Source of the DNA: Chitinophaga vietnamensis
Lineage (GTDB): Bacteria; Bacteroidota; Bacteroidia; Chitinophagales; Chitinophagaceae
DNA length: 64,000 nt
Reading direction: 5' to 3'
NCBI RefSeq assembly: GCF_902167635.1
Contig: NZ_CABHMS010000007.1
Span: 1-64,000, forward strand
A program made the translations under genes and the position numbers. Position 1 is the stretch's first letter. Each line of letters opens with the position of its first letter. Positions 43,116-64,000 of the stretch are shown here, one piece after another. The notes below the pieces were generated by a model. The model saw nothing but the letters and a program-made list of their open reading frames with translations, was not told where the DNA came from and ran no database searches.

Positions 43116-43150
43116 CTTGTAAAATTTTTGCTGACGGATGTATCTCGCTG

Positions 43151-45964: not shown

Positions 45965-45973
45965 TCTGCTTAT

Positions 45974-47006: not shown

Positions 47007-47040
47007 AACGCTCTTTTTTGATCTGTGTAAATGTAAACAA

Positions 47041-48051: not shown

Positions 48052-48093
48052 ACAGCTGCCAAAGCTAATGGCTAAAATCTGATTTCCGAAATC

Positions 48094-49389
48094 TTACTGT
48101 AGCAACGCTTTTTTAAAGGCAGTATAATCTGCGGGCAGCAGGGTAGCGGATTTCTCTTTGCCATAGAGCTGCATCACGCGGGCCGGCGCATGTATCTCTT
48201 CCCGCAAGGATGGCGGCGCCGTGTCTTCAAACTTCACGGGGTGGGCCGTTTCCAGGAAAACGCCGGTTACATCGGGATGGGCAGACAGATATTCCTGCAA
48301 GCCGAGGTAGCCCACTGCGCCATGCGGATCAAGCATATAGTGATTCTCTTTCCAAACTTTTTCCATGGTGAGCAGGGTGTCCTTGTCATTGAAGCTATAG
48401 GCGCTGAAGCGCTCCTGTAATTTCGGCAAGCTGTTGCCGAATAACTGTAACACCCGTACGAAATTGCTGGGATCAGCTACGTCCATGGCATTGGAAAGGG
48501 TGGGAGCGGCCTTCCCTGGCTGGTATACGCCGCTGGCCATAAAGCGAGGCACCGTATCGTTGATATTGGTAGCGGCCACGAAATGCTCCACCGGCAGGCC
48601 GATAGCGGCCGCCATCATGCCCGCGCAGATATTTCCAAAATTGCCGCTGGGCACAGAGAACACCAGCTGCGGATGTGCGGCCTTCATCTGTTTCCAGGCA
48701 AGGAAATAATAAAACATCTGCGGCAGCCAACGCGCTACATTGATGGAATTGGCGGAAGTGAGCGGCCGCTTGTTTTGCAGCTCCTGGTCGAGGAAGGCGG
48801 TTTTCACCAGCTGCTGGCAATCGTCAAAAGTGCCAATGATCTCGAACGCGCTAACGTTGCCGCCCAATGTAGTGAGCTGTTTCTCTTGCAGGGTGCTTAC
48901 TTTTTTGGAAGGATAAAGTATCACCACCTGTATGCCCGGCACATTATAAAAGCCACTGGCCACGGCGCCGCCGGTATCGCCGGAAGTGGCCACCAGCACG
49001 GTTACGGGCTTGGTGCTGTTGCGGCGGAAGTAGCCAAGACAGCCCGCCATAAAACGTGCGCCTACATCTTTGAAGGCAAGGGTAGGGCCGTGAAAGAGTT
49101 CCAGTGCGTAGGTCGATTTCGAAACTTTCTGCACGGGGAAAGGGAAGTGCAGGGTGTCTGCCACAATCTTCTTCAATTGTTCTTCCGGTATTTCATCTCC
49201 CACAAACGGGCGTATCACGTTGGTACCAATCTCCTGGTCTGAATACTGATGGATATTTTTGAGGAAGTCCGGGTCCAGTGCCGGTATCTCTTCCGGAAAG
49301 TATAATCCTCTATCGGGCGCTAATCCTTGTGTAACGGCGGTTTCAAAAGATACTTTGTGCTGTGCGTTCTGAAGACTGAAGTACTGCAT
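48094..49389 (-). CDS. thrC: Threonine synthase
   Basis: 431 residues. PLP-dependent fold type II with the cofactor Lys in ALAFKDVGARFMAG. Further family features are ATSGDTGGAVASGFY, SANSINVARWLPQ and SVPSGNFGNICAGM. It converts O-phosphohomoserine to threonine. It is the last of the thrA-thrB-thrC cluster, 18 bases after thrB. Confidence 0.97.
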   Translation of the reverse strand: MQYFSLQNAQHKVSFETAVTQGLAPDRGLYFPEEIPALDPDFLKNIHQYSDQEIGTNVIRPFVGDEIPEEQLKKIVADTLHFPFPVQKVSKSTYALELFHGPTLAFKDVGARFMAGCLGYFRRNSTKPVTVLVATSGDTGGAVASGFYNVPGIQVVILYPSKKVSTLQEKQLTTLGGNVSAFEIIGTFDDCQQLVKTAFLDQELQNKRPLTSANSINVARWLPQMFYYFLAWKQMKAAHPQLVFSVPSGNFGNICAGMMAAAIGLPVEHFVAATNINDTVPRFMASGVYQPGKAAPTLSNAMDVADPSNFVRVLQLFGNSLPKLQERFSAYSFNDKDTLLTMEKVWKENHYMLDPHGAVGYLGLQEYLSAHPDVTGVFLETAHPVKFEDTAPPSLREEIHAPARVMQLYGKEKSATLLPADYTAFKKALLQ

Positions 49390-49407
49390 GAATCATTCTT
49401 TATTTTG

Positions 49408-50334
49408 TTAGTCAATCACCTTTACACCTGCTGTATTGATGCGGGACACATAAATTTTATAATCTACGCCGAGGGGCGCGTATACGCTATCCATGGTGGC
49501 GGCCACTTTGCGGGCATTCTCTTCTCCTTTGCTGAGCATGAACACCGATGGCCCTGAGCCGGAGATGCCGCCGCCGAGCGCGCCGGCCTCCTTGCATTTC
49601 AGTTTCAGTTCATAGAATGCGGGGATGAGGATGGCCCTTACCGGCTCTACGATTACATCTTCCAGGGAGCGGCTGATCAGGTCATAATCTTCCTGGTACA
49701 GCGCGGCTACCAATGCGCCTACGTTGCCCCACTGGCGGATCGCGTCGGTCATCAATACTTTTTGTTTCAGTATCTCGCGTGCGTCCGATGTCTTTACTTC
49801 TATCTGTGGATGTATCACGGTTACCCACAGTTCCGATGGCGTATGCAGGCTGGTGATATCCAGCGGGCGATAGCTGCGTACCAGCGTGAAACCCCCGAGG
49901 ATGGCCGGTGCTACGTTGTCGGCATGCGCAGAGCCACAGGCCAGTCTTTCGCCTTCCATCGCAAAACGTACCAGTTGTTTGGGCGTAAAAGGTTCGCCCA
50001 GCAATTTATTTACGCCTACCACGGCGCCCGCGCTGCTGGCGGCGCTGGAGCCAATGCCGCTGCCGGGATGTATATGTTTGAATATCTCTATCTCTATGCC
50101 GGTGTCGGGTTTTTCATATTTCTGTAACAGCGCCTGAACGGCTACGCCAGCTACATTCTGTGAGGTTTCCAGGGGAAGATCGGCGCCGTGGATCGCGGTA
50201 ATACGGATGCCGGGTTCACTGCTCCTGCGTAAGATCATTTCGTCGCCGGGGGCGTCCATGGCCAGTCCTATCACATCAAAACCGCATGCTACGTTGGCAA
50301 CGGTGCCGGGCGCAAATACTTTTATACAATCCAT
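49408..50334 (-). CDS. thrB: Homoserine kinase
   Basis: 308 residues, GHMP-kinase family. ATP-binding motif HPGSGIGSSAASSAGAVVG, start motif KVFAPGTVANVACGFDVIG, and GGGISGSGPSVFML near the C-terminus are intact. It phosphorylates homoserine. It lies 38 bases after thrA and belongs to the same cluster. Confidence 0.97.
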   Translation of the reverse strand: MDCIKVFAPGTVANVACGFDVIGLAMDAPGDEMILRRSSEPGIRITAIHGADLPLETSQNVAGVAVQALLQKYEKPDTGIEIEIFKHIHPGSGIGSSAASSAGAVVGVNKLLGEPFTPKQLVRFAMEGERLACGSAHADNVAPAILGGFTLVRSYRPLDITSLHTPSELWVTVIHPQIEVKTSDAREILKQKVLMTDAIRQWGNVGALVAALYQEDYDLISRSLEDVIVEPVRAILIPAFYELKLKCKEAGALGGGISGSGPSVFMLSKGEENARKVAATMDSVYAPLGVDYKIYVSRINTAGVKVID

Positions 50335-50372
50335 AAATTAATAATTGATTTTTATGTTTACAAGCACATTTT

Positions 50373-52817
50373 TTATAAACGTGCACTGCGGATGATGTCG
50401 GCAAAGATGCCGGAGGCGGTTACGTCCGCGCCGGCGCCGGCGCCCTTCACGATCAGCGGCTGCTCTTTGTAGCGGCTGGTGGTATACAGCACGATATTAT
50501 CTTTTCCTTCCAGCTGGTAAAAAGGATGATCGGGCGATACACATTGCAGGCCTACCGATGCCTGGCCATCCACATAGCTGGCCACGAACTTGAGGCGTTT
50601 CCCTGCGGATTCTGCTTCTTCGCGCAGCCGTTGGAAATGGGCGGCATGGGTGTCCAGTTCCTCGTAGAAACCGGCGACAGACGGCGCATCCAGGCAGGCT
50701 GCCGGCAGGAAGGAGTGATTGGTGATATCTTCCATCTCTATCGCCGCGCCGCTCTCCCTGGCAAGGATGAGTATCTTGCGCATCACATCTTTCCCGCTGA
50801 GGTCTATGCGCGGATCCGGTTCGGTGTAACCCTCGTCCTGCGCGGCTTTCACCACTTCGCGGAAACTGGCGCCATTTACGAAATGATTGAATACGAAATT
50901 GAGACTGCCGGATAATACTGCTTGTATGCTATGCACTTTGTCGCCACTCCTTACGAGATCGTTGAGGGTGTTGATCACCGGCAAGCCTGCGCCCACATTG
51001 GTTTCGAAGAGGAAGGAGGCATTGTATTTACGCGCCAGGTCTTTCAGCTTCTTATAATATTCATAGTCGGAGGAGCAGGCAATTTTGTTGCAGGTAACTA
51101 CCGAGATGCCGTGTTGCAGGAACTCGTGATAGGTAGCTGCTACTTCTGCGCTGGCGGTATTGTCTACAAATACGCTGTTGCGCAGGTTGAATGATTTGAT
51201 CTGCTGTACCAATGCGTTCATATCCATGGGATCGCCCTGTGGGAGCGCGTTACGCCAGTCGTGCAGCCCGATGCCATATTCGCTGAGCAGCATGTTTTTG
51301 CTGTTGGCGAGGCCGGCAACCCTGATCTGGAGGCCCAGTTCCTGTTGCAGGTAATCCTGCTGTTGCTGTAGCTGTTCCAGCAGTTTGCCGCCTACGTTAC
51401 CAACACCTGCTATGAAAAGGTTGACCTGTTTGAGTGGTGCTTCGAAGAACGCTTCGTGGATGAGGTTGAGCGCTTTTTTTACATCCGCTTTGTTGATCAC
51501 TGCGGAGATATTTTTTTCGGTAGATCCCTGTGCGATGGCCCTTACGTTTACGCCGTTACGACCGAGGGTGCCGAACAGTTTGCCGCTGGTGCCGTGATGG
51601 TTTTTCATTTTGTCGCCCACTACGGCTACAATGCAGAGATCTTTTTCTACCAGTAAAGGTTCGATACGTTTCTCCTGTATCTCTTGCGCAAACTCGCTGT
51701 CCACAGCGGTTTTGGCCTTGAGCATATCGGTGTCATGAATGCCGACAGTGATAGAGTGTTCGGAAGAGCTCTGGGTGATGAGGATTACGTTGATGCGTTC
51801 CCGTAGGAGCGATTCGAACAATCTTTTTGAGAAGCCGGGGATGCCCACCATGCCGCTGCCTTCGAGGGTGAGCAGCGCGATGTGCTGTATGCCGGAGATG
51901 CCGGTTACCGGGAAGCTGCGGTCCGCGCCGTCATGTATCAGCGTGCCGTGGTCTTCCGGGGCAAAAGTATTTTTGATCCATACGGGGATGCGTTTGTCCA
52001 TCACCGGTTGGATGGTAGGTGGATAGATCACTTTGGCGCCGAAGTGCGACAGCTCCATCGCTTCGGCATAGGAGATGTGCGCGATGGGGATGGCTTGCGA
52101 TACGAGGCGCGGATCGGCGGTCATCATGCCGCTTACATCTGTCCAGATATCGAGTACGCTGGCATGTACGGCGGCGGCGAGGATGGCGGCGGTGTAGTCG
52201 GAGCCGCCGCGGCCCAGCGTGGTGGTTTCGCCTTCGGGCGTAGCGGCCACGAAGCCGGGGAATACAATGTAGTCGGCCGTTTGCTGTGCAAAATACTGAC
52301 TGATATGATGGTTGGTGGCGACGAAGTTAACGGTGGCATGGCCGAAGTTGTTATCGGTCACGATCAGCTCGCGGCTGTCTTTGCAGGTGGCGGAGAGACC
52401 TTGCTGTTTTAATTTCTCTGCTACGATGGTGCAGGAGATGAGTTCGCCGAAGCTCATGATCTTGTCTAATGAGCGGGGACTGAGTTCACCTACCTGGAAG
52501 ATGCCATCACAAAGGTTTTCGAGGGCATTCAGTTTTTTCTTGAGCTGGCTGATAAGGCCGCTCTGCATGGTGATAGGGAACAATTCGCGGATAGCGTCGA
52601 GGTGGCGGGCTTCTATTTCCTGTAGTACGGCCTTGTATTGTTCCTGGCCTTCTCCGGCGAGCTGTCCGCAACGTATAAGCTTGTCTGTTATGCCGCCCAT
52701 GGCGGATACTACGATGGCATATTTTCCTGCCGGTTTATATTTTTTCAGTATGAGGCAAACTTGTTCTATCGCTTTGGCGCTGCCGACGGAGGTGCCGCCG
52801 AATTTTAGTACTTGCAT
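50373..52817 (-). CDS. thrA: Bifunctional aspartate kinase / homoserine dehydrogenase
   Basis: 814 residues, close to the enterobacterial ThrA length. Aspartate kinase half (about 1-300): MQVLKFGGTSVGSAKAI start and ATPEGETTTLGRGGSDYTAAI. Two ACT-type regulatory domains occupy about 310-460. The homoserine dehydrogenase half (about 470-814) has a NAD(P)-binding IAGVGNVGGKLLEQL and the GAGLPVINTLNDLVRSGD and EGYTEPDPRIDLSGKD motifs. It feeds threonine, and through homoserine also methionine. Preceded by a candidate attenuator leader. Confidence 0.97.
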   Translation of the reverse strand: MQVLKFGGTSVGSAKAIEQVCLILKKYKPAGKYAIVVSAMGGITDKLIRCGQLAGEGQEQYKAVLQEIEARHLDAIRELFPITMQSGLISQLKKKLNALENLCDGIFQVGELSPRSLDKIMSFGELISCTIVAEKLKQQGLSATCKDSRELIVTDNNFGHATVNFVATNHHISQYFAQQTADYIVFPGFVAATPEGETTTLGRGGSDYTAAILAAAVHASVLDIWTDVSGMMTADPRLVSQAIPIAHISYAEAMELSHFGAKVIYPPTIQPVMDKRIPVWIKNTFAPEDHGTLIHDGADRSFPVTGISGIQHIALLTLEGSGMVGIPGFSKRLFESLLRERINVILITQSSSEHSITVGIHDTDMLKAKTAVDSEFAQEIQEKRIEPLLVEKDLCIVAVVGDKMKNHHGTSGKLFGTLGRNGVNVRAIAQGSTEKNISAVINKADVKKALNLIHEAFFEAPLKQVNLFIAGVGNVGGKLLEQLQQQQDYLQQELGLQIRVAGLANSKNMLLSEYGIGLHDWRNALPQGDPMDMNALVQQIKSFNLRNSVFVDNTASAEVAATYHEFLQHGISVVTCNKIACSSDYEYYKKLKDLARKYNASFLFETNVGAGLPVINTLNDLVRSGDKVHSIQAVLSGSLNFVFNHFVNGASFREVVKAAQDEGYTEPDPRIDLSGKDVMRKILILARESGAAIEMEDITNHSFLPAACLDAPSVAGFYEELDTHAAHFQRLREEAESAGKRLKFVASYVDGQASVGLQCVSPDHPFYQLEGKDNIVLYTTSRYKEQPLIVKGAGAGADVTASGIFADIIRSARL

Positions 52818-52867
52818 GTCAAATAAAGTTTATACGTAGAAATGGTCCGGGTCCTTTCCGGTTGTGT

Positions 52868-52920
52868 ACCACCTGTGTGGTCGTTGGATGATATGTGAAA
52901 ACTAACCCCGCAGTGGGGTT
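52868..52920 (-). promoter_or_regulatory. Tandem hairpins in the thrA leader (candidate attenuator)
   Basis: On the transcript, AACCCC-ACTGC-GGGGTT (52920 to 52904) coincides with the end of the Thr/Ile-rich leader frame and is followed by AGTTTT. A second stem ACCAC-ACAG-GTGGT lies at 52881 to 52868. The 3' GGTGG could alternatively pair with CCACC inside the Thr/Ile codon run, giving the mutually exclusive folds that attenuation needs. This is inference from pairing by eye. Confidence 0.5.
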
Positions 52921-53012
52921 GTAATAATGGTGGATGTAATGGCAATAGTGCGGGTGCATTCCCGATAGGAGGCGGGAGCGGAGGAGATCAGATATGTAGA
53001 TACTGCTTGCAC
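52902..53012 (-). CDS. Candidate threonine/isoleucine leader peptide (thrL-like)
   Basis: A 36-residue frame from a GTG at 53012 to TAG at 52902-52904. In its last 17 residues, positions 20-32 read T-R-T-I-A-I-T-S-T-I-I-T-T: ten of thirteen residues are Thr or Ile, the two amino acids that control thr operons in enterobacteria. The stop falls at the descending arm of a hairpin, and thrA begins 84 bases later. A weak promoter (53037-53067) gives a 5' end near 53030. The only soft point is the non-ATG start; the overlapping ATG frame at 52819-52959 reads these codons out of phase. Confidence 0.6.
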   Translation of the reverse strand: MQAVSTYLISSAPASYRECTRTIAITSTIITTPLRG

Positions 53013-53036
53013 TATTGAAATATGACGATTGTGTAA

Positions 53037-53067
53037 CAAAAGTCTATCTTTTCACTGGTAAATAAAA
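53037..53067 (-). promoter_or_regulatory. Candidate thrA-operon promoter
   Basis: Minus strand: TTTT (53067 to 53064), 19-bp spacer, GACTTTTG (53044 to 53037). One mismatch in each box against TTTG-N19-TAnnTTTG. Leader length to thrA would be about 210 bases. Confidence 0.45.
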
Positions 53068-53246
53068 GCACCCGTTCGATATTTTGAAATGTTTTAAAAA
53101 ATGGATGTTCTATTAGTATTTGATTATAATTTTCGATTTATTTTAGATGATAAGATGATTTTGTGCTGATTTGGTTCGATTTGTTTGATGGTTGGATAGA
53201 TTTAAAAATGCGTTTTTATGACATTTTGATGACAAATTATTGTTTG

Positions 53247-53277
53247 TTTGGTTTATTTCAAAATATCCTTACCTTTA
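53247..53277 (+). promoter_or_regulatory. Promoter-like element upstream of a possible small transcript
   Basis: TTTG (53247-53250), exactly 19 bp, TACCTTTA (53270-53277): only the last base departs from TAnnTTTG. The expected start is near 53283. It lies in a long A/T-rich gap (53050-53611) without a convincing gene. Confidence 0.5.
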
Positions 53278-53282
53278 ATCGT

Positions 53283-53426
53283 CTAAACTATATATCCTTG
53301 TCGGAATCGTTGAAATATACTTCCAATAGTCAGCTCCGCTACTATTTTCTCATGGCCACCCTCGCCATGGATTCGACTTTGGCATAACCCTCTGAAACGG
53401 CCTGTACGGGCCGGTCTTCCTGTTTT
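53283..53426 (+). ncRNA. Candidate small RNA or hmgA leader transcript
   Basis: A ~140-base transcript would run from the promoter at 53247-53277 to a weak terminator-like hairpin CGGCC-TGTACG-GGCCG (53398-53413) followed by a T-rich tract (53414-53426). Inside is an 11-codon frame MATLAMDSTLA (53352-53387) and a small ATGGC/GCCAT hairpin. It could be a small RNA, a small peptide mRNA or an upstream leader of hmgA. It is weak evidence: only promoter, hairpin and spacing. Confidence 0.3.
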
Positions 53427-53433
53427 TATACCG

Positions 53434-53441
53434 TAACTTTG
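53434..53441 (+). promoter_or_regulatory. Exact TAnnTTTG box upstream of hmgA
   Basis: TAACTTTG matches the -7 element exactly. The upstream box is not recognisable at 19 bp. It would give a ~165-base 5' leader before the hmgA ATG at 53612. Confidence 0.45.
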
Positions 53442-53611
53442 TAGTAGTCTTTCCGTACCTGCTATTTCAGTTCATGTATATATCTCTACTCGTAAATTTT
53501 TTATTAACGATCAACATAGCGTATTACGTTGTGCATCATTGATCATACACCAGAGCAATTAGATCATACACCATTACAATCCCGTTTTGAAAAAATTCTC
53601 AAAAACCAGTT

Positions 53612-54769
53612 ATGCCACATTATCATAAGCTAGGACAGATACCACATAAGCGCCATACACAGTTCCGCAAGCCCGACGGCAAGCTGTATTCGGAGCAGTT
53701 GTTCTCTACGGAAGGCTTTTCATCGCACTCTTCTTTATTGTATCATTGTCATCCGCCCACCGAGATCGTAAAGGTAGAAGAGCCTTATTCCGTAGCGCCG
53801 CGCGTGGCAGAAGAAAAAATGCTGAAACACCGCAGCTTCCAGGGGTTCAACATCGCGGCGGAAGATGATTTCCTGAAAAGCCGCAAGGCCGTGCTGGCCA
53901 ACAGCGACCTGCACATCGTACTGGCAGCGCCAAGGCACAGCATGAAAGATTATTTCTATAAGAATGCCGATGCAGATGAAATGATCTTTGTGCATGAAGG
54001 CAGCGGCCTCCTCAAAACGCAATACGGGCAGCTTACTTTCGGCTATGGCGATTACCTCGTGATACCAAGAGGCACGATCTACCAGATCAGCTTCAGCAAT
54101 GAAAACAATCGCCTTTTCATCGTGGAATCGTTTAGCCCTATCCGTTATCCGAAACGTTACCTCAGCAAATACGGGCAACTGCTGGAAAATTCACCTTATT
54201 GCGAGCGCGATATCCGCCAGCCGCAAAACCTGGAAACCATCGACCAGGAAGGTGATTTTGTCATCAACGTAAAAAAGAAAGGCGTGATGTATCCCATCCA
54301 TTACAAACACCATCCCTTCGATGTTGTTGGCTGGGATGGATGCGAATACCCCTTTGCCTTTTCCATCCACGATTTTGAGCCGATCACCGGCCGTGTGCAT
54401 CAGCCGCCTCCGGTGCATCAAACTTTTGAAGGCAATAATTTCGTGGTATGCTCCTTCTGCCCCCGTCTGTTCGATTACCATCCGCTGGCCATTCCTGCGC
54501 CCTATAACCACAGCAATATCGACAGCGATGAAGTGCTGTATTATGTAGATGGCGATTTCATGAGCCGCAAACATGTAACGAGAGGCATGATCACCCTGCA
54601 TCCGGCGGGCATCCCGCACGGGCCGCATCCCGGTGCAGTGGAGAAGAGCATCGGCGCAAAAGAAACAAAAGAACTGGCAGTGATGGTGGATACTTTCCAT
54701 CCGCTGCAAATAACGGAAGCCGCTCTCGGCATCGAAGATGCCGGTTACGTCATGAGCTGGGCAGAATAG
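53612..54769 (+). CDS. hmgA: Homogentisate 1,2-dioxygenase
   Basis: 385 residues, of the shorter bacterial type. It opens the homogentisate ring to maleylacetoacetate in tyrosine/phenylalanine breakdown. The cupin iron-binding region is visible: HHPFDVVGWDGCEYPFAFSIHDFEP, VHQPPPVHQTFEG, and near the C-terminus HPAGIPHGPHPGA with the His/Glu ligands. The start PHYHKLGQIPHKRHTQFR is typical. Followed by hppD, which makes its substrate. Confidence 0.96.
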   Translation: MPHYHKLGQIPHKRHTQFRKPDGKLYSEQLFSTEGFSSHSSLLYHCHPPTEIVKVEEPYSVAPRVAEEKMLKHRSFQGFNIAAEDDFLKSRKAVLANSDLHIVLAAPRHSMKDYFYKNADADEMIFVHEGSGLLKTQYGQLTFGYGDYLVIPRGTIYQISFSNENNRLFIVESFSPIRYPKRYLSKYGQLLENSPYCERDIRQPQNLETIDQEGDFVINVKKKGVMYPIHYKHHPFDVVGWDGCEYPFAFSIHDFEPITGRVHQPPPVHQTFEGNNFVVCSFCPRLFDYHPLAIPAPYNHSNIDSDEVLYYVDGDFMSRKHVTRGMITLHPAGIPHGPHPGAVEKSIGAKETKELAVMVDTFHPLQITEAALGIEDAGYVMSWAE

Positions 54770-54815
54770 GTCAAATACCAACCAACATTATTAAAACCAA
54801 AACAATTTGAACGTC

Positions 54816-55946
54816 ATGGAAACAGCAACAGTAAATGCTTCCAGCCTTACGGGTCAGCAGGATTTTTTACCGCTCAATGGTACCGACTATGTAGAATTCT
54901 ATGTAGGCAATGCCAAACAGGCGGCACATTATTATAAGACCGCTTTCGGTTTTCAGTCGGTAGCCTATGCAGGCCCCGAAACCGGCGTGAAAGACCGCGC
55001 CTCCTATGTGCTTGTGCAGAACAAACTGCGCTTTGTGCTCACCACGCCCTTGCAGCCGGACAATGAGATGGCCCGCCACATCGCCGAACATGGCGACGGC
55101 GTAAAAGTGCTGGCGCTTTGGGTAGATGATGCCCGTTCCGCTTTTGAAGAAACCGTGAAACGCGGCGCCAAACCATACCTGGAGCCGGTTGTAGAGAAAG
55201 ATGAATTCGGCGAAGTAGTGCGCAGCGGTATTCATACCTATGGCGATACCGTGCACATATTTGTAGAACGCAAAAATTACAAAGGCCTTTTCCTGCCGGG
55301 TTACAAGGAATGGAAAACAGCTTACAACCCCACTGATACCGGTCTTCAATATGTAGATCACTGCGTAGGCAATGTGGGTTGGAATGAAATGAATACCTGG
55401 GTAGAATTCTACGAGCGCACCATGGGCTTCCGCAATCTCATCTCCTTTGATGATAAAGATATCTCTACGGAATATTCTGCGCTCATGAGCAAAGTAATGA
55501 GCAATGGCAATGGCCGTGTGAAATTCCCGATCAACGAGCCTGCCGAAGGAAAGAAGAAATCGCAGATCGAGGAGTACCTTGATTTTTATGGCGGTCCGGG
55601 CGTACAGCACGTGGCCATCGCCACCAACGATATTATCCACACGGTGTCTGAACTGCAGCAGCGTGGCGTGGAATTCCTGAAGGTGCCGGCCTCTTATTAT
55701 GAAACGCTGCTCGACAGGGTGGGCAAGATCGATGAGCAGGTAGCGCCGTTGCAGGAGCTGGGTATCCTGGTAGACCGGGATGATGAGGGATACCTGCTGC
55801 AGATCTTTACCAAGCCTATCCAGGACAGGCCGACTGTTTTCTTTGAAATTATTCAGCGTAAAGGGGCGCAGTCTTTTGGTAAAGGCAATTTCAAGGCTTT
55901 GTTTGAATCCATTGAAAGGGAACAGGCGCTGCGTGGCAACCTCTGA
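54816..55946 (+). CDS. hppD: 4-hydroxyphenylpyruvate dioxygenase
   Basis: 376 residues from the ATG at 54816; the TTG at 54807 is not needed. Two VOC-type halves with the Fe ligands: QYVDHCVGNV, GVQHVAIATNDI and a C-terminal Glu in PTVFFEIIQRKG. It makes homogentisate from 4-hydroxyphenylpyruvate. It lies 46 bases after hmgA; the pair is terminated at 56028-56063. Confidence 0.97.
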   Translation: METATVNASSLTGQQDFLPLNGTDYVEFYVGNAKQAAHYYKTAFGFQSVAYAGPETGVKDRASYVLVQNKLRFVLTTPLQPDNEMARHIAEHGDGVKVLALWVDDARSAFEETVKRGAKPYLEPVVEKDEFGEVVRSGIHTYGDTVHIFVERKNYKGLFLPGYKEWKTAYNPTDTGLQYVDHCVGNVGWNEMNTWVEFYERTMGFRNLISFDDKDISTEYSALMSKVMSNGNGRVKFPINEPAEGKKKSQIEEYLDFYGGPGVQHVAIATNDIIHTVSELQQRGVEFLKVPASYYETLLDRVGKIDEQVAPLQELGILVDRDDEGYLLQIFTKPIQDRPTVFFEIIQRKGAQSFGKGNFKALFESIEREQALRGNL

Positions 55947-56027
55947 TGCAATGTTTTTCGTTTGTTACGCTACCTGTTGAATAACCCTTAAATTCCGCTG
56001 AAAGGTTACAACAAATTTCAGCCTGCT

Positions 56028-56063
56028 AATCCGTTCCGGCTCTGACCGGAACGGATTTTTTTT
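56028..56063 (+). terminator. Rho-independent terminator of hmgA-hppD
   Basis: AATCCGTTCCGG (56028-56039), loop CTCTGA, CCGGAACGGATT (56046-56057), then a T run. The rest of the 295-base gap to 56242 shows nothing else. Confidence 0.95.
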
Positions 56064-56241
56064 ATTATTTTAAATAAATTATTATTACTTTTAATATATA
56101 AATAGAGATAAATATAAGACGGGGTATATGGATGAGATGGCGGCCGATTAACATATTAATAACGAGTTTACAGGGTTCAACAGGCAGGCTTTGGCATAAT
56201 TTTGTGAACGAGAGTACGCATTTCAAAAAAAATCATAACCT

Positions 56242-57051
56242 ATGCACAAAACAGTTACCCACGGGGTTGCCTGCGCCATGCTGCTGGCCTCCGTAACTTT
56301 TATGTCTTCATTTAAAAATGACGATGGCACATCAGGTACTTACCTGAAAAAGATCTCTTCCGCTTCCGGCCAGACTACGCTGGAATACAACAGTGACAAA
56401 ACCATCCGGAAGATCGTGCAGCATCACAAAACAGAGAATGCCAGCTACACCGACGTTACATTGCCGGTGTACGAAAATGGCCATCTTGTAAAGACAATGC
56501 TCGCAGATGATGAGAACGCCAGTTCTGGCGACCTTTACGCGGCTTATGACTATGTACAAGGCAGCGACAAGATCGCGAAAGTGAGCTTCTATCGCGATAA
56601 TGCCGTGTACACCTACGATTCACTGGCATATGATGCCAATGGCAGACTGGCCTTCCGTTACCAGTTCAGCAAAGTGCCCGGCAAAGGCGCCTGGGAAAAC
56701 AGCGGTTATCAGCAATTTACCTGGAACGACAAAGGCGATGTGGAACGCATGGACAATTACGGCAAACAGCCCGGCTATAGCAAATTTGTGAACACTTCCA
56801 GCATTAACTACACTTACGACGACCGTCAGAACCCGCAATTGCAGCAACCTGCACTCGCTTTTGTGCTGGATGCCAATGCAGCCAACCTCTCGGCGCACAA
56901 CATCCTGTCCGAGAATTTAAGCACGCCGCATTCCTCCCGCGTGATCACCAACACCTACGTATATACGTATGCCGGACGCTACCCTGTTCGCGCTACCTAT
57001 AACTCCGGTGCAGATCAGGGAATCGTAAAACTGGAATGGGCAAAGTTGTAG
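56242..57051 (+). CDS. Exported YD-repeat-like hypothetical protein
   Basis: 269 residues with a signal peptide-like start (GVACAMLLASVTFM). The body is beta-rich with YD-like strands (LEYNSDKTIRKIVQHH, YDSLAYDANGRLAFRYQF, FTWNDKGDVERMDNYG, NTYVYTYAGRYPVRATY), resembling the DUF4595-type proteins of Bacteroidota. No catalytic motif is seen. Function unknown; envelope location likely. Confidence 0.7.
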   Translation: MHKTVTHGVACAMLLASVTFMSSFKNDDGTSGTYLKKISSASGQTTLEYNSDKTIRKIVQHHKTENASYTDVTLPVYENGHLVKTMLADDENASSGDLYAAYDYVQGSDKIAKVSFYRDNAVYTYDSLAYDANGRLAFRYQFSKVPGKGAWENSGYQQFTWNDKGDVERMDNYGKQPGYSKFVNTSSINYTYDDRQNPQLQQPALAFVLDANAANLSAHNILSENLSTPHSSRVITNTYVYTYAGRYPVRATYNSGADQGIVKLEWAKL

Positions 57052-57111
57052 TGAAAGAAGAATGACTTAACTTTACAGGCAATATAACCAGTAATTGTTT
57101 CGTTTTTTTCT

Positions 57112-57300
57112 ATGACCAATCAAACGCTGTTTGGAATTTTGTTTCTGTTGGGTGGAGTTTTTCAGGCTTTTACGGCAATTCTTATCTATCAAGGTCACAA
57201 ACATTACCTGTTAAGATTTGCCAGTAAAAAAGTAAGTATAGTGATTTATATTATCTTAGCACTGTTGTTATTTTTCCTGGCCTACATCAACCTGGTATAA
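57112..57300 (+). CDS. Small two-helix membrane protein
   Basis: 62 residues with two clear TM helices (about 5-25, LFGILFLLGGVFQAFTAILIY, and about 42-60, VSIVIYIILALLLFFLAYI). It is separated from the L,D-transpeptidase gene by 23 bases and may be co-transcribed. No family recognised; a role at the membrane cannot be specified. Its ORF quality and spacing support a real gene. Confidence 0.55.
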   Translation: MTNQTLFGILFLLGGVFQAFTAILIYQGHKHYLLRFASKKVSIVIYIILALLLFFLAYINLV

Positions 57301-57323
57301 AATTTAAATTTGTTGTATTTGAT

Positions 57324-58073
57324 ATGAAGCGACTTGTTCTCGTCCTGATGATGATATTGACAGGCGGCAGTTTATTTGCCCAGCAATCCTTCCTCGATAA
57401 CCAAAAAATGTTTCCCAAGGTAGGAGAGGCTTACCGCGAAAAGGAAGAACTGCTGAAAAAAGAATTTGAGAAGAAAGGACTGACTTATCCCGCAAAATAT
57501 ATTTTCATCCGTTCCTTCAAGCTCGACAGCGAAATGGAGATCTGGGTGAAAAACAATGCAACAGACACTTTCCGTCTTTTCAAGTCCTACCGGGTGTGCA
57601 CGCTCTCCGGAAGAATGGGGCCGAAACGTAAGGAAGGCGACCGCCAGGTGCCGGAAGGATTTTATTATATCAATGATTTCAATCCAAACAGCAATTATCA
57701 TCTGTCGCTCGGCATCAATTATCCTAACTTTTCCGACCGTATCCTGAGTGACCCGAAAAAACCGGGCAGCGAAATTTATATCCATGGTAACTGTATTACC
57801 GTTGGCTGTATCCCGCTGACAGACGAATTTATCGACGAGGTGTACATCCTCGCGGTGAATGCCAAGAATGCCGGCCAGGATTTCATTCCTGTGCATGTGT
57901 TCCCCGTGAAGTTCGGTAATGTTCGTTCTATGGATTATCTTGGTACGGTATCGCTCAATGATAATTCTTCCCAGCAATTCTGGGTAGAATTGAAAACTGC
58001 CTACGATTATTTCGAAAAGCATCACCGCCTGCCGGTAGTGCTCATCGACGACAAAGGCAAATATATTATGTAA
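57324..58073 (+). CDS. L,D-transpeptidase family protein (YafK/YkuD-type)
   Basis: 249 residues with a signal peptide (VLVLMMILTGGSLFAQQ). The catalytic region is IYIHGNCITVGCIPLTDEF: the HG...GC arrangement of YkuD/YafK domains, with catalytic Cys in VGC. The upstream LFKSYRVCTLSG and DRQVPEGFYYI fit the fold. Such enzymes cross-link or attach to peptidoglycan stem peptides in the periplasm, and the YafK-like branch includes hydrolase members. Followed by a strong terminator. Confidence 0.9.
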   Translation: MKRLVLVLMMILTGGSLFAQQSFLDNQKMFPKVGEAYREKEELLKKEFEKKGLTYPAKYIFIRSFKLDSEMEIWVKNNATDTFRLFKSYRVCTLSGRMGPKRKEGDRQVPEGFYYINDFNPNSNYHLSLGINYPNFSDRILSDPKKPGSEIYIHGNCITVGCIPLTDEFIDEVYILAVNAKNAGQDFIPVHVFPVKFGNVRSMDYLGTVSLNDNSSQQFWVELKTAYDYFEKHHRLPVVLIDDKGKYIM

Positions 58074-58094
58074 GCTGAGTTTTTCAGATATATC

Positions 58095-58138
58095 AACAAA
58101 GGGGTGGACAACGGTCAGTAGTCCACCCCTTTGTTTTT
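58095..58138 (+). terminator. 15-bp-stem terminator after the L,D-transpeptidase gene
   Basis: AACAAAGGGGTGGAC (58095-58109) pairs perfectly with GTCCACCCCTTTGTT (58121-58135), followed by T residues. Confidence 0.95.
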
Positions 58139-58220
58139 AGATACGTTCTTATTTAATATTAATTTGGATTTTAGAGAATTTTTTTGAAACTTGTCCAAAG
58201 GTCAAATCAATTTACTATTT

Positions 58221-58796
58221 ATGCACAGAAGAGACGCAATCAGGAATGTGGCGATTTTGTTGGGTACAGCCATTTCCGCTTCCACGTTATCAGCTCTGGA
58301 GAGCTGCACAGGTTCCGCACCGAAAAACTATGAACTCAATAAGCCACAAACCAAAGCGTTGCTGGCAGAAATAGCGGAAACGATCATACCCACCACCGAT
58401 ACGCCCGGCGCCAAAGCGGCGAAAGTAGACGATTTCATCATCACCATGATGAACGATTGCTACAAAAAATCAGACCAGGAGGTATTCCTCCAGGGATTGA
58501 AAAAGATCGACGAGGCCAGCGATAAGAAATTCAAGAAGACTTTCATGGACCTTACACCGGATCAACGCACGCAGCTCCTGACAGATATCGACAAGGAACG
58601 CGTTGAATACAACAAACGTAAGGACAAAAAAGAGGGCGATCCTACCCATTACTTCCAGTATCTGAAAGAGCTGACCCTGCTGGGGTATTTCACCTCCGAA
58701 CCCGGGGCTACCAAAGCATTGCGCTATGTGCCGGTGCCCGGCAAATTCGAAGGTTGCATCCCTTATAAAAAAGGTGATAAAGCCTGGGCGGTCTGA
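58221..58796 (+). CDS. Gluconate 2-dehydrogenase subunit 3-like protein with Tat signal
   Basis: 191 residues from the ATG at 58221; the TTG at 58191 is unlikely. It begins HRRDAIRNVAILL, a twin-arginine signal, followed by a lipobox-like ALESC. The gluconate_2-dh3 domain is recognisable (LLAEIAETIIPTTDTPGAKAAKVDDFI). In this family subunit 3 carries the Tat signal and pulls the large flavoprotein across the membrane with it. Both downstream GMC proteins lack a signal peptide, as expected. No cytochrome subunit is in the window. Confidence 0.9.
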   Translation: MHRRDAIRNVAILLGTAISASTLSALESCTGSAPKNYELNKPQTKALLAEIAETIIPTTDTPGAKAAKVDDFIITMMNDCYKKSDQEVFLQGLKKIDEASDKKFKKTFMDLTPDQRTQLLTDIDKERVEYNKRKDKKEGDPTHYFQYLKELTLLGYFTSEPGATKALRYVPVPGKFEGCIPYKKGDKAWAV

Positions 58797-58859
58797 TCCG
58801 CGGTTATCTTCATATAGCCGTCCACGTTATTACATTACATCTCCTTAAAAAGACATTCC

Positions 58860-60557
58860 ATGAATTTGAATATAAAAGCGCAAGAGCAAAACACCTACGA
58901 TGCCATCGTTATCGGTTCGGGTGTGAGTGGTGGATGGGCCGCCAAAGAATTGACCGAAAAAGGCCTGAAAGTGCTGATGCTGGACCGTGGTAAAAAGCTC
59001 GAGCATGTGAAAGACTACGACACCGCCACTAAAGATCCCTGGGAGTTCCCCCACCGCGGACGTATCACCGTTGATCAACGCGAAACGCATCCCAAGCTGA
59101 GCCGCGACTATCCTTATAGTGAACACAACGAAAAATACTGGATCAACGATTCCCAGAGTCCATATAACGAAGTGAAACGCTTCGACTGGTACCGCCCGGA
59201 TATCGTAGGTGGCAAATCCATCATGTGGGGTCGCCAATCGTACCGCTGGAGCGATATCGATTTTGAAGCGAACCTGAAAGATGGCATCGCCGTGGATTGG
59301 CCAATCCGCTACAAGGACATTGCGCCCTGGTACGACTATGTAGAAAAATTCGCCGGCATCAGCGGACAGCGCGAAGGCCTGCCACAGCTGCCCGACGGCC
59401 AGTTCATGCCCGCCATGGAAATGAACTGCGTAGAGAAAGATGTGAAGAAAAGTGTAGAAAGCAAATTCAAAGGCCGTATCATCACCATGGGGCGTGTGGC
59501 TAACATCACACAACCATTGCCCGGCCGTGAAAAATGCCAGTTCCGCAACCTGTGCAGCCGCGGATGCCCCTTCGGCGCTTATTTCAGCACGCAATCATCC
59601 ACGCTGCCCGCAGCCATGGCTACCGGCAACCTCACGCTGCGCCCCGATTCCATCGTTCACTCCATTATCTACGATGAGAAAAAAGGCAAAGCTACCGGCG
59701 TGCAAGTGATCGACAAGCATACCAAGGAAATGGTAGAATATTACGCGAAGATCATCTTCGTAAATGGCTCTACCCTCGGTTCAACCTTCGTACTGATGAA
59801 CTCCATCTCCACCCGTTTCCCTAATGGATTAGGCAACGACAGTGGCCAGCTGGGTAAAAACCTGATGGATCACCACTTCCGCACCGGCGCTTCCGGCACG
59901 GCAGAAGGCTATGATGATAAATATTATTTCGGCCGCCGTGCAAACGGTATCTATATTCCGCGTTATCGTAACATCGGCAGCGACAAGCGCGATTACCTCC
60001 GTGGCTTCGGCTACCAGGGCGGCGCAGGCCGCGGCGGATGGGCGCGCGGTATCGCTGAAATGGGCGTGGGTAAAGACTTTAAAGAAATGCTTACCGAACC
60101 AGGCCAATGGTCTATGGGCCTCGGCGGTTTCGGCGAATGTCTGCCTTATGAAGATAACAAGGTAACCCTCGACACATCCACCAAAGATGCATGGGGCCAG
60201 CCTGTTCTCAAATTCGATGTGGAGTTCAAAGAGAATGAAAAGAAAATGCGCGTGGATATGATGAACGACGCCGCCGAAATGCTCGAAGCAGCAGGGCTCA
60301 AGAACGTGAAGACCTATGACAATGGCTCCTGGCCAGGCATGGCGATCCACGAGATGGGCACCGCACGCATGGGCCGCGATCCTAAAACATCTGTCCTCAA
60401 TGGCAACAACCAACTGCACGCCGTTCCGAACGTGTTCGTAACAGACGGCGCCTGCATGACCTCCGCCGCCTGCGTGAATCCTTCACTGACCTACATGGCA
60501 TTGACTGCACGCGCTGCCGACTACGCCGTGAAAGAACTTAAAAAAGGGAACATCTAA
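58860..60557 (+). CDS. GMC oxidoreductase, gluconate-dehydrogenase large-subunit type (first copy)
   Basis: 565 residues. FAD-binding GxGxxG (AIVIGSGVSGGWAAKEL) at the N-terminus and the C-terminal catalytic pattern EMGTARMGRD with ACVNPSLTYMALT. A conserved Cys trio sits at 226, 232 and 236 (CQFRNLCSRGCPFGAY). The spacing resembles the 3Fe-4S ligand loop of bacterial FAD-dependent sugar dehydrogenases; that match is an inference. Expected to oxidise a sugar or polyol in the periplasm with electrons passed on, but substrate unknown. Confidence 0.93.
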   Translation: MNLNIKAQEQNTYDAIVIGSGVSGGWAAKELTEKGLKVLMLDRGKKLEHVKDYDTATKDPWEFPHRGRITVDQRETHPKLSRDYPYSEHNEKYWINDSQSPYNEVKRFDWYRPDIVGGKSIMWGRQSYRWSDIDFEANLKDGIAVDWPIRYKDIAPWYDYVEKFAGISGQREGLPQLPDGQFMPAMEMNCVEKDVKKSVESKFKGRIITMGRVANITQPLPGREKCQFRNLCSRGCPFGAYFSTQSSTLPAAMATGNLTLRPDSIVHSIIYDEKKGKATGVQVIDKHTKEMVEYYAKIIFVNGSTLGSTFVLMNSISTRFPNGLGNDSGQLGKNLMDHHFRTGASGTAEGYDDKYYFGRRANGIYIPRYRNIGSDKRDYLRGFGYQGGAGRGGWARGIAEMGVGKDFKEMLTEPGQWSMGLGGFGECLPYEDNKVTLDTSTKDAWGQPVLKFDVEFKENEKKMRVDMMNDAAEMLEAAGLKNVKTYDNGSWPGMAIHEMGTARMGRDPKTSVLNGNNQLHAVPNVFVTDGACMTSAACVNPSLTYMALTARAADYAVKELKKGNI

Positions 60558-60559
60558 TT

Positions 60560-60657
60560 ATTTTGTTATTTGGTTATTTGATTATTTGGTTATTTAAACT
60601 TCCGGACTATCATCGGAGTTTAAATAACCAAATAATCAAATAACCGAATAACAAAAT
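60560..60657. repeat. Long near-perfect inverted repeat between the two GMC genes
   Basis: The arm 60560-60605 (ATTTTGTTATTTGGTTATTT...) pairs with 60613-60657 with one mismatch and one bulge. It sits between co-directional paralogues and may act as a partial terminator. Confidence 0.85.
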
Positions 60658-60671
60658 TCCAAAATGGTTTT

Positions 60672-62369
60672 ATGAATCTTAATATAAAAGCTGAGAAAGA
60701 AAATACTTATGACGCCATTGTGGTAGGGTCGGGGATCAGTGGTGGATGGGCTGCTAAAGAGCTTTGTGAGAAAGGCCTGAAAACATTGGTGCTGGAACGT
60801 GGCCGCAATGTGGAGCACGTAAAAGACTACAAGACTGCTATGATGGCTCCCTGGGAGTTTCCCCACCGTCTGCATCATACCAACGAGATGCGTGAGAAAC
60901 ATCCCATCCAGAGCCGCTGCTATGCCTTCGATGAAGCCACACAGCAATACTGGGTGAACGACCTGGAAAATCCTTACAACGAAGTGAAGCCCTTCAACTG
61001 GTTGCGTGGCTACCATGTGGGCGGACGTTCCCTCATGTGGGGCCGTCAGGTATATCGCTGGAGCGACCTCGATTTTGAAGCGAACGCAAAAGACGGGCAC
61101 GGCGTAGATTGGCCGATCCGTTATAAAGATATTGCACCCTGGTATTCATACGTGGAGAAATTCGTTGGCGTGAGCGGACAGCACGAAGGGCTGGCACAGC
61201 TGCCTGATGGCGAGTTTCTGCCGCCGATGGAAATGAACTGCCTCGAGAAACATGTGGCGGCACGCGTCAAGGAAAAATTCAATGACCGCATCATCACCAT
61301 CGGGCGTGTAGCGCACCTGACCAAAGGCATGAAAGACCGTGGACCTTGCCAGTTCCGTAACCTCTGCGCCCGCGGATGCCCATTCACCGGCTATTTCAGC
61401 AGCAATGGCGTTACGTTGCCTGCCGCTGCCGCCACCGGCAATCTCACGCTGCGCCCGGATTCTATCGTGCTGGAAGTTTTGTACGATAAAGATAAAGGCA
61501 AAGCTACCGGCGTACGCGTGATGGATGCGCATACACAGCAAACTGTAGACTACTACGCCAAGATCGTTTTCCTGAATGCCTCTACACTGGGCACCACCTG
61601 GGTCATGCTCAACTCTGTGTCCGACCGCTTCCCGAACGGGTTTGGTAACGACAGCGGCCAGTTGGGCCATAACCTGATGGATCATCATTTCGGTGTGGGC
61701 GCCGGCGGTGATTTCGATGGTTTTGAAGATCAGTACTATGATGCAGGCCGCAGGCCCAATGGTATCTATATCCCGCGCTTCCGTAACGTGAACGCACAAA
61801 CGCTGCGCAAAGATTATGTGCGCGGCTTCGGCTACCAGGGCGGCGCAGGAAGAGGTCGCGGCACCAGCTGGGAGGGCATCGGCGCACAACTCAAAGCTGC
61901 GCAGGAAGTGCCTGGGCACTGGAGCATGGGCATCGGCTCATGGGGCGAGCATCTCCCTTATTACGAGAATAAAGTATCTCTCAACAAAAACAAAAAAGAT
62001 AAATTCGGTCTGCCTACGCTCGACATCGACTGTGAATTTAAAGAGAATGAAAAGGCGATGCGTAAAGACATGCAGGAAAGCGCCAAGGAAATGCTGGAAG
62101 CTGCCGGTCTGAAAAACGTATATGGTTACGATGGCGCGCCGCCTCCGGGCCACTGTATCCACGAGATGGGCACCGCGCGTATGGGCAAAGATCCGAAAAC
62201 CTCTGTGCTCAATGGTTTCAACCAGGTGCATGACGCGAAGAATGTATTCATCAGCGATGGGGCCTGCATGGCTTCTTCCTCCTGCGTAAATCCTTCTATC
62301 ACTTATATGGCCCTCACCGCCAGGGCCTGTGATCATGCCCTGAGTGAACTGAAGAAAGGAAATCTTTGA
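60672..62369 (+). CDS. GMC oxidoreductase, gluconate-dehydrogenase large-subunit type (second copy)
   Basis: 565 residues, the same length as the first GMC protein and clearly a paralogue (N-terminus MNLNIKAEKENTYDAIV versus MNLNIKAQEQNTYDAIV). The FAD site, the Cys trio at 226/232/236 (CQFRNLCARGCPF) and the C-terminal EMGTARMGKD...CVNPSITYMALT are intact. No signal peptide, so it would need subunit 3 for export. Two flavoproteins with one subunit 3 suggest alternative or mixed complexes. From 60817 onward the gene lies within the perfect palindrome that mirrors it at 62448. Confidence 0.93.
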   Translation: MNLNIKAEKENTYDAIVVGSGISGGWAAKELCEKGLKTLVLERGRNVEHVKDYKTAMMAPWEFPHRLHHTNEMREKHPIQSRCYAFDEATQQYWVNDLENPYNEVKPFNWLRGYHVGGRSLMWGRQVYRWSDLDFEANAKDGHGVDWPIRYKDIAPWYSYVEKFVGVSGQHEGLAQLPDGEFLPPMEMNCLEKHVAARVKEKFNDRIITIGRVAHLTKGMKDRGPCQFRNLCARGCPFTGYFSSNGVTLPAAAATGNLTLRPDSIVLEVLYDKDKGKATGVRVMDAHTQQTVDYYAKIVFLNASTLGTTWVMLNSVSDRFPNGFGNDSGQLGHNLMDHHFGVGAGGDFDGFEDQYYDAGRRPNGIYIPRFRNVNAQTLRKDYVRGFGYQGGAGRGRGTSWEGIGAQLKAAQEVPGHWSMGIGSWGEHLPYYENKVSLNKNKKDKFGLPTLDIDCEFKENEKAMRKDMQESAKEMLEAAGLKNVYGYDGAPPPGHCIHEMGTARMGKDPKTSVLNGFNQVHDAKNVFISDGACMASSSCVNPSITYMALTARACDHALSELKKGNL

Positions 62370-62447
62370 TCATTTGATTTATTTTAATTGCATAAAGGCC
62401 CCCGCGGTACCGCGGGGGCCTTTATGCAATTAAAATAAATCAAATGA
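62370..62447. terminator. Palindromic terminator at the centre of the inverted duplication
   Basis: Between the two mirrored stop codons, 39-base arms: TTTGATTTATTTTAATTGCA... then AAAGGCCCCCGCGG / CCGCGGGGGCCTTT. The GC-rich stem followed by TTTAT is a normal terminator for the gene at 60672, and its centre is exactly the symmetry axis of the larger palindrome. Confidence 0.85.
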
Positions 62448-64000
62448 TCAAAGATTTCCTTTCTTCAGTTCACTCAGGGCATGATCACAGGCCCTGGCGG
62501 TGAGGGCCATATAAGTGATAGAAGGATTTACGCAGGAGGAAGAAGCCATGCAGGCCCCATCGCTGATGAATACATTCTTCGCGTCATGCACCTGGTTGAA
62601 ACCATTGAGCACAGAGGTTTTCGGATCTTTGCCCATACGCGCGGTGCCCATCTCGTGGATACAGTGGCCCGGAGGCGGCGCGCCATCGTAACCATATACG
62701 TTTTTCAGACCGGCAGCTTCCAGCATTTCCTTGGCGCTTTCCTGCATGTCTTTACGCATCGCCTTTTCATTCTCTTTAAATTCACAGTCGATGTCGAGCG
62801 TAGGCAGACCGAATTTATCTTTTTTGTTTTTGTTGAGAGATACTTTATTCTCGTAATAAGGGAGATGCTCGCCCCATGAGCCGATGCCCATGCTCCAGTG
62901 CCCAGGCACTTCCTGCGCAGCTTTGAGTTGTGCGCCGATGCCCTCCCAGCTGGTGCCGCGACCTCTTCCTGCGCCGCCCTGGTAGCCGAAGCCGCGCACA
63001 TAATCTTTGCGCAGCGTTTGTGCGTTCACGTTACGGAAGCGCGGGATATAGATACCATTGGGCCTGCGGCCTGCATCATAGTACTGATCTTCAAAACCAT
63101 CGAAATCACCGCCGGCGCCCACACCGAAATGATGATCCATCAGGTTATGGCCCAACTGGCCGCTGTCGTTACCAAACCCGTTCGGGAAGCGGTCGGACAC
63201 AGAGTTGAGCATGACCCAGGTGGTGCCCAGTGTAGAGGCATTCAGGAAAACGATCTTGGCGTAGTAGTCTACAGTTTGCTGTGTATGCGCATCCATCACG
63301 CGTACGCCGGTAGCTTTGCCTTTATCTTTATCGTACAAAACTTCCAGCACGATAGAATCCGGGCGCAGCGTGAGATTGCCGGTGGCGGCAGCGGCAGGCA
63401 ACGTAACGCCATTGCTGCTGAAATAGCCGGTGAATGGGCATCCGCGGGCGCAGAGGTTACGGAACTGGCAAGGTCCACGGTCTTTCATGCCTTTGGTCAG
63501 GTGCGCTACACGCCCGATGGTGATGATGCGGTCATTGAATTTTTCCTTGACGCGTGCCGCCACATGTTTCTCGAGGCAGTTCATTTCCATCGGCGGCAGA
63601 AACTCGCCATCAGGCAGCTGTGCCAGCCCTTCGTGCTGTCCGCTCACGCCAACGAATTTCTCCACGTATGAATACCAGGGTGCAATATCTTTATAACGGA
63701 TCGGCCAATCTACGCCGTGCCCGTCTTTTGCGTTCGCTTCAAAATCGAGGTCGCTCCAGCGATATACCTGACGGCCCCACATGAGGGAACGTCCGCCCAC
63801 ATGGTAGCCACGCAACCAGTTGAAGGGCTTCACTTCGTTGTAAGGATTTTCCAGGTCGTTCACCCAGTATTGCTGTGTGGCTTCATCGAAGGCATAGCAG
63901 CGGCTCTGGATGGGATGTTTCTCACGCATCTCGTTGGTATGATGCAGACGGTGGGGAAACTCCCAGGGAGCCATCATAGCAGTCTTGTAGTCTTTTACGT
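62448..64000 (-). CDS. Mirror copy of the second GMC oxidoreductase gene (partial at window edge)
   Basis: Minus-strand reading is identical in sequence to the gene at 60672-62369; 517 codons plus the stop lie in the window and the first ~48 codons would lie beyond 64000. Protein features are those of the original. It should be treated as uncertain whether this copy exists in the organism: the perfect identity and zero-spacer symmetry point to a fold-back artefact at a contig end or, less likely, a real inverted duplication. Confidence 0.45.
   Translation of the reverse strand, partial: VKDYKTAMMAPWEFPHRLHHTNEMREKHPIQSRCYAFDEATQQYWVNDLENPYNEVKPFNWLRGYHVGGRSLMWGRQVYRWSDLDFEANAKDGHGVDWPIRYKDIAPWYSYVEKFVGVSGQHEGLAQLPDGEFLPPMEMNCLEKHVAARVKEKFNDRIITIGRVAHLTKGMKDRGPCQFRNLCARGCPFTGYFSSNGVTLPAAAATGNLTLRPDSIVLEVLYDKDKGKATGVRVMDAHTQQTVDYYAKIVFLNASTLGTTWVMLNSVSDRFPNGFGNDSGQLGHNLMDHHFGVGAGGDFDGFEDQYYDAGRRPNGIYIPRFRNVNAQTLRKDYVRGFGYQGGAGRGRGTSWEGIGAQLKAAQEVPGHWSMGIGSWGEHLPYYENKVSLNKNKKDKFGLPTLDIDCEFKENEKAMRKDMQESAKEMLEAAGLKNVYGYDGAPPPGHCIHEMGTARMGKDPKTSVLNGFNQVHDAKNVFISDGACMASSSCVNPSITYMALTARACDHALSELKKGNL

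What the first reader, a model, noticed from the sequence alone, without database searches (positions are those of the whole stretch)
60817..64000. Perfect 3.2-kb palindrome centred on a terminator, with a mirrored GMC gene
The last 3,184 bases form one zero-spacer inverted repeat with no mismatch where I compared it, running off the window. Perfect palindromes this long are known to be unstable in bacteria (they are cleaved by SbcCD-type nucleases and block replication), so three explanations compete. (a) Fold-back at the GC-rich terminator hairpin during library preparation or assembly, giving a false contig end; I think this most likely. (b) A molecule ending in a covalently closed hairpin, which reads as a perfect palindrome when both strands are assembled. 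(c) A genuine recent inverted duplication. The axis coinciding exactly with the terminator centre fits (a) best, and also (b) if the hairpin is a telomere.
Basis: partly seen in the sequence, partly recalled or inferred. Interest (0 to 1): 0.75.

Follow-up and report, generated by a model that had tools for sequence, protein, structure and literature searches.

The report
False mirror copy in genome assembly
The mirror-image sequence is almost certainly an assembly mistake: at a strong natural hairpin the assembly turned back and wrote the same stretch of a soil-type bacterium's chromosome twice, instead of going on into the neighbouring contig.

Summary
The palindrome is present in the sequence and far longer than seen: contig C7 bases 1-124,816 form one zero-spacer inverted repeat, 62,408-bp arms, 0 mismatches. 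The window holds one whole arm and 1,592 bases of the other.

It is almost certainly an assembly fold-back. The axis lies in a natural hairpin. Contig C10 begins 14 bases before the axis, inside that hairpin, shares 53 bases with it, then runs into other sequence. C10's first genes (GH35 beta-galactosidase, nuo operon) follow the GMC gene in relatives: in 22 of 29 loci within the 1.5-kb flank, and in 3 of 3 one-contig genomes compared gene by gene. None of these shows a mirrored GMC gene. rpe, in the arm, is present as two mirror copies here but once over cut-off in 58 of 59 relatives. The outer tip of the window's arm stops inside a 51-bp tandem array; the other arm runs through it, collinear with relatives. 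Contig ends in this assembly are enriched in inverted repeats (10 of 25 against 90 of 3,000 control windows).

A hairpin telomere and a real duplication are disfavoured. Read depth, which would settle it, was not available.

The parts
1..62408 (+). First arm of the palindrome: genuine chromosomal sequence, but this copy has no independent outer flank and its right-hand junction is probably false
   Evidence: 0 mismatches in 62,408 pairs against C7:62409-124816; the other copy continues to the rest of C7
62409..64000 (-). Visible start of the second arm, which continues to C7:124,816 outside the window
62370..62447 (.). Stretch that would be a natural palindrome even without the fold-back: left half here, right half is C10:15-53; 39-bp arms
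   Evidence: C10:1-53 = window 62395-62447; arm of 39 when C7's left arm is set against C10
62395..62422 (.). GC-rich core of the hairpin; contig C10 starts at the base corresponding to 62395
   Evidence: pattern found at C7:62395-62422 and C10:1-28, a relative of it at C2:261973-262000
60672..62369 (+). GMC oxidoreductase gene 2 (565 aa); last gene before the axis
62448..64000 (-). Mirror copy of GMC gene 2 (runs to C7:64145)
58860..60557 (+). GMC oxidoreductase gene 1 (565 aa), tandem paralogue of gene 2
46356..46988 (-). rpe (ribulose-phosphate 3-epimerase), mirrored at C7:77829-78461
   Evidence: TIGR01163 over cut-off
42672..43109 (-). purE, mirrored at C7:81708-82145
   Evidence: TIGR01162 over cut-off
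1..230 (.). Tip of the first arm inside a 51-bp tandem array; the array in the second arm is C7:124587-125013, 8.5 copies
   Evidence: (L012:7587-8013), mirrored coordinates

Best explanation
An assembly fold-back. In the living chromosome the two tandem GMC genes are followed by a strong hairpin (39-bp arms, probably the transcription terminator of GMC gene 2), then by the GH35 and nuo genes that now start contig C10. Because the hairpin reads the same on both strands, a path entering it from the left can leave it forward (to C10, true) or back along the other strand (false). The assembler, or fold-back reads given to it, took the second exit, copied 62,408 bases and stopped in the 51-bp tandem array. 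Shown: the palindrome, the two alternative exits, gene order in relatives, doubling of genes that are single in relatives, the tip in the array. Inferred: the exact step (graph traversal, scaffolding or fold-back reads) and that read depth would be single-copy.
For: C10:1-53 equals window 62395-62447, then diverges. GH35, C10's first gene, lies after GMC gene 2 on the same strand within the 1.5-kb flank in 21 of 29 unnamed relatives' loci, nuoA in 1 more, neither in 7. Of 16 named-record loci with the tandem GMC pair, 13 have at least one of three C10 genes downstream, 3 do not (the two sets share genomes). In 3 of 3 one-contig relatives examined (15 one-contig relatives were listed), C7 from about 135 kb down to the axis and then C10 are collinear on one chromosome, with some genes missing in each. 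0 mismatches in 62,408. GMC gene 2 at 77% identity or more: two places here, one in 49 of 59 relatives, none in 10. rpe: two here, one over cut-off in 58 of 59. The array tip has no match to any of the other contig ends compared. Contig ends are enriched in inverted repeats: 10 of 25 against 90 of 3,000; stricter exact-arm test 4 of 26 against 36 of 2,000. The natural junction makes words of up to 78 bases readable on both strands, none of 79 or longer among the sizes tried.
Against: No reads, depth or assembly record were available. A plain de Bruijn assembler would not be expected to write a 62-kb path twice (own knowledge), so the precise step is unknown. dnaA is on C1, which gave no support to the idea that high depth near the origin made this stretch look two-copy. 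7 of 29 loci and 3 of 16 lack the C10 genes within the flank held. purE is not strictly single in the genus: 6 of 59 relatives have two over cut-off.
Confidence: 0.95

Rival explanations
1. A genuine, very recent inverted duplication: the chromosome, or part of the population, carries a 125-kb palindrome formed by fold-back replication or repair at the hairpin.
For: Large inverted repeats do exist in bacteria: L. delbrueckii ssp. bulgaricus has repeats of 23-37.6 kbp (PMC5345009, abstract and passages). This genome gave no SbcD match and only a weak SbcC stretch, so one known barrier may be missing.
Against: C10 starts in the same hairpin and matches the ancestral order, so a real palindrome needs either a further copy of the hairpin or a mixed population. 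The only exact places of the core found in the assembly are on C7 and C10. Zero spacer and 0 mismatches in 62 kb; the L. bulgaricus repeats have a 1-8.8 kbp unique centre. No mirrored GMC hit in any of the 109 relatives' loci laid out (flanks 1.5-10 kb, some shorter).
Confidence: 0.03
2. A linear molecule ending in a covalently closed hairpin telomere at 62408, read through both strands.
For: Zero-spacer palindrome centred on a hairpin, as a read-through telomere would give.
Against: Sequence continues from the hairpin in C10 with the gene order of one-contig relatives. No match to the ResT/TelK catalytic family PF16684 in the genome; the weight is limited, since that control rang in only 1 of 14 genomes.
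Confidence: 0.005
3. The error arose in the reads (template and complement read as one molecule, or amplification chimeras) and not in the assembler.
For: Fold-back reads are documented for Nanopore and PacBio data (PMC12870357, abstract; PMC13265396, abstract and passages).
Against: 62-kb arms exceed most reads (own knowledge); contig ends cluster at hairpins across this assembly, which rather suggests failure at the assembly level. It is a sub-case of the best explanation and does not change the verdict.
Confidence: 0.3

Closest known systems
Fold-back / palindromic artefacts of reads and assemblies (PMC12870357 abstract; PMC13265396 abstract and passages; PMC6218980 search listing only; PMC7953838 passages, which name erroneous scaffolding as a source of artificial palindromes)
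   Same: Reverse-complement copy next to the original, a false junction, one arm without an independent outer flank
   Different: 62-kb arms; centred on a natural terminator-like hairpin whose expected partner contig is present in the same assembly
[quoted passage not shown] bulgaricus (PMC5345009, abstract and passages)
   Same: Tens of kilobases of inverted repeat in a bacterial chromosome
   Different: Those have a 1-8.8 kbp unique centre, were found in 5 of 5 strains, and had doubled depth in the two strains where depth is described; here the centre is empty, no relative's locus shows a mirrored copy, and the expected neighbour is a separate contig
Intrinsic (Rho-independent) terminator hairpin
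   Same: GC-rich stem-loop just after a stop codon; the joined C7/C10 stretch folds at -62.3 kcal/mol, z -15.9
   Different: The stem is long (37 pairs, 4-nt loop; 39-bp arms as DNA) and its 16-base core occurs in 0 of the 59 other genomes searched

Membership tests
Assembly fold-back artefact | Perfect reverse-complement arms with little or no spacer | tested here: met
   0 mismatches in 62,408 pairs, zero spacer
Assembly fold-back artefact | A different, biologically expected continuation from the axis exists in the data | tested here: met
   C10 starts in the hairpin; gene order as in relatives
Assembly fold-back artefact | One arm lacks an independent outer flank | tested here: met
   C7 begins inside the 51-bp array; no match to the other contig ends compared (C15 was not compared)
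Assembly fold-back artefact | Single-copy read depth over the arm and no spanning reads | not testable with these tools
   No reads available
Hairpin-telomere linear replicon | The replicon ends at the axis | tested here: not met
   Hairpin continues into C10, collinear with relatives
Hairpin-telomere linear replicon | Telomere resolvase of the ResT/TelK family encoded | tested here: not met
   0 matches to PF16684 in G000; control rang in 1 of 14, so sensitivity is weakly controlled
Natural large bacterial inverted repeat (L. bulgaricus type) | Unique central region between the repeats | tested here: not met
   Zero spacer, against 1-8.8 kbp
Natural large bacterial inverted repeat (L. bulgaricus type) | Doubled read depth | not testable with these tools
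   No reads available
Natural large bacterial inverted repeat (L. bulgaricus type) | Position at the replication terminus | tested here: inconclusive
   dnaA is on C1, contig order is not known, GC skew in the window is weak
Intrinsic terminator | Stable GC-rich stem-loop just after a gene | tested here: met
   termination itself was not tested

The most novel reading that the evidence does not exclude
Part of the culture carries a true 125-kb head-to-head palindrome, made by fold-back at the terminator hairpin and tolerated because this lineage has no recognisable SbcCD nuclease; both junctions, the normal one to C10 and the palindromic one, would then be present in the reads.
Probability: 0.02. 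Interest if true: 0.7.

Novelty: not a real feature. Interest (0 to 1): 0.08.

Why it matters
Mostly as a warning. The error adds about 62 kb (1%) to a species-representative genome, doubles normally single genes such as rpe, and probably feeds the 1.8% contamination value quoted for it (inference). Gene counts and copy-number studies using this genome would see duplications that are very likely not there. The way it was recognised is reusable: look for a second contig that begins inside the axis hairpin and test its gene order in relatives.

Tried and rejected
Hairpin telomere: searched PF16684 in the genome, none. SbcCD instability as an argument: SbcD not found, SbcC only a 58-position stretch at E 1.6e-4 on C12, none over cut-off in 21 of 21 genomes, so I do not use it; SbcD was not searched in relatives. 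High depth near the origin: dnaA is on C1, no support. Conservation of the hairpin in relatives: the core is absent from 59 of 59, and the spacers after GMC gene 2 in 16 named loci hold hairpins with arms of 4 to 17 bp within about 260 bp, so the element is not conserved. Exact-arm test of contig ends misses imperfect or cut hairpins; the alignment test was added afterwards and its threshold of 20 was chosen after seeing scores; other thresholds give 10 of 25 against 114 of 3,000 (18) to 6 of 25 against 44 of 3,000 (30). Both sets include C10's start, which is part of the finding. C14 and C15 ends were left out of both tests, and C11's start, which reads N, out. Paper searches for the same kind of contig error in bacteria gave read-level and scaffolding artefacts but I opened only four papers; a search on Chitinophaga and palindromes gave one paper, not opened.

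Full report
Observation. The window is bases 1-64000 of contig C7 (381,290 bases) of a 6,308,408-base assembly in 15 contigs. The last 3,184 bases are a perfect palindrome with its axis between 62408 and 62409; the next longest perfect zero-spacer palindrome in the window has 8-bp arms. Reading C7 on to base 174,000 shows that the palindrome covers C7:1-124,816: 62,408 pairs compared, 0 mismatches.

The axis. The centre is a GC-rich hairpin 39 bases after the stop codon of a 565-residue GMC oxidoreductase gene (60672-62369), itself preceded by a tandem paralogue (58860-60557). A DNA search of the whole assembly with 62300-62520 finds, besides the two strands of this place, the first 53 bases of contig C10, identical to window 62395-62447, and a related hairpin on C2. 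C10 thus starts 14 bases before the axis, shares the hairpin and then departs. Set against C10, C7's left arm gives a natural palindrome of 39-bp arms, which folds as RNA into 37 pairs with a 4-base loop at -62.3 kcal/mol. So two continuations exist for the same hairpin: back along C7, or on into C10.

Which is true. Close relatives named by the collection are Chitinophaga, and the genus sample of 59 further genomes was searched. C10 begins with a GH35 beta-galactosidase-like gene and then the nuo genes (names from sequence and recall, not from a family search). In 29 unnamed relatives' loci with 1.5-kb flanks, GH35 follows GMC gene 2 on the same strand in 21, nuoA in 1, and neither is within the flank in 7. 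In 16 named-record loci with the tandem GMC pair and longer flanks, 13 have at least one of the three C10 genes tested downstream and 3 do not; the remaining 64 of 80 named loci do not have this pair and were not counted. No locus of the 109 shows a GMC hit in the opposite orientation. In three one-contig relatives (3 of the 15 one-contig relatives listed) I compared all open frames of at least 150 residues: from about C7:135,000 down to the axis and on through C10 the matching genes lie in one order on one chromosome, with some genes lacking in each relative; of 9 C10 frames, 6, 3 and 9 were matched in G030, G057 and G041, the fetched stretch ending first in G030 and G057.

Copy number. GMC gene 2 at 77% identity or more occurs at two places here, at one in 49 of 59 relatives and at none in 10 (list cut at weaker matches). 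rpe is over its cut-off twice here and once in 58 of 59 relatives; in the remaining one it is split by a stop. purE is twice over its cut-off here; 6 of 59 relatives also have two, but these are of clearly different score and not mirror copies.

The outer end. C7 starts inside an array of a 51-bp unit. In the second arm that array is C7:124587-125013 and the contig goes on; in G057 the genes on its two sides are neighbours. The first arm has no flank beyond it, and the first 250 bases of C7 match none of the other contig ends compared. This is what one expects if the first arm is a copied walk that stopped at a repeat.

The assembly as a whole. Many contig ends lie in inverted repeats: by self-complement alignment 10 of 25 ends against 90 of 3,000 interior windows, by exact arms 4 of 26 against 36 of 2,000. 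Two other contig pairs overlap exactly at such sites by 49 and 64 bases (C11 end with C6 start, C4 end with C2 start), much like the 53 bases here. One dispersed palindromic element of about 186 bases accounts for several ends.

Rivals. A hairpin telomere would end the replicon at the axis, but the sequence continues in C10; no ResT/TelK-type resolvase was found (weak control). A real duplication has a precedent in L. delbrueckii ssp. bulgaricus (PMC5345009; abstract and passages), where 5 of 1368 complete genomes screened had large close inverted repeats, 3 of them at the terminus; but those have a unique centre of 1-8.8 kbp, and here C10 would need a further copy of the hairpin or a mixed population. 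The usual argument that such palindromes are destroyed by SbcCD is weak here, because SbcD was not found and SbcC only as a weak stretch. That leaves a small chance of a real palindrome in part of the culture, which I state as the novel case.

Verdict. An assembly fold-back at a hairpin; the sequence of the window is genuine up to 62408, but the junction at the axis and the second copy are not. The precise technical step cannot be told without the reads.

Noticed in passing
27969-28154 (mirror C7:96663-96848): A dispersed, near-perfect palindromic repeat of about 186 bases (176 of 186 positions self-complementary in this copy). 80 strand matches, i.e. about 40 places including the mirror copy, with only 40 of 133 candidates scored, so a lower bound. 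Weaker matches in 5 of 39 relatives, best in G027 and G034. A long palindromic repeat family in a genome without recognisable SbcD is worth a look of its own.
   Followed up: partly
G000 contigs C5 end and C4 start (L144, L128): The last 148 bases of C5 are the exact reverse complement of the first 148 of C4: two contigs that stop at the centre of the same kind of palindrome.
   Followed up: no
1-230 (array C7:124587-125013): Tandem array of a 51-bp unit with a short hairpin motif, 8.5 copies, 92% matches.
   Followed up: no
G000 C2, C3, C8, C11 (L126, L127, L131, L142, L146, L133): A second dispersed hairpin, an AGCCCTTGAAGCGCT stem with a 3-base loop, seen several times in about 497 kb scanned, also at the end of C2.
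   Followed up: no
whole genome and 20 relatives: SbcC-like proteins with long matches appear in only 5 of 21 Chitinophaga genomes searched (G007, G010, G013, G016, G020), none over the family cut-off; SbcD not found in this genome.
   Followed up: partly
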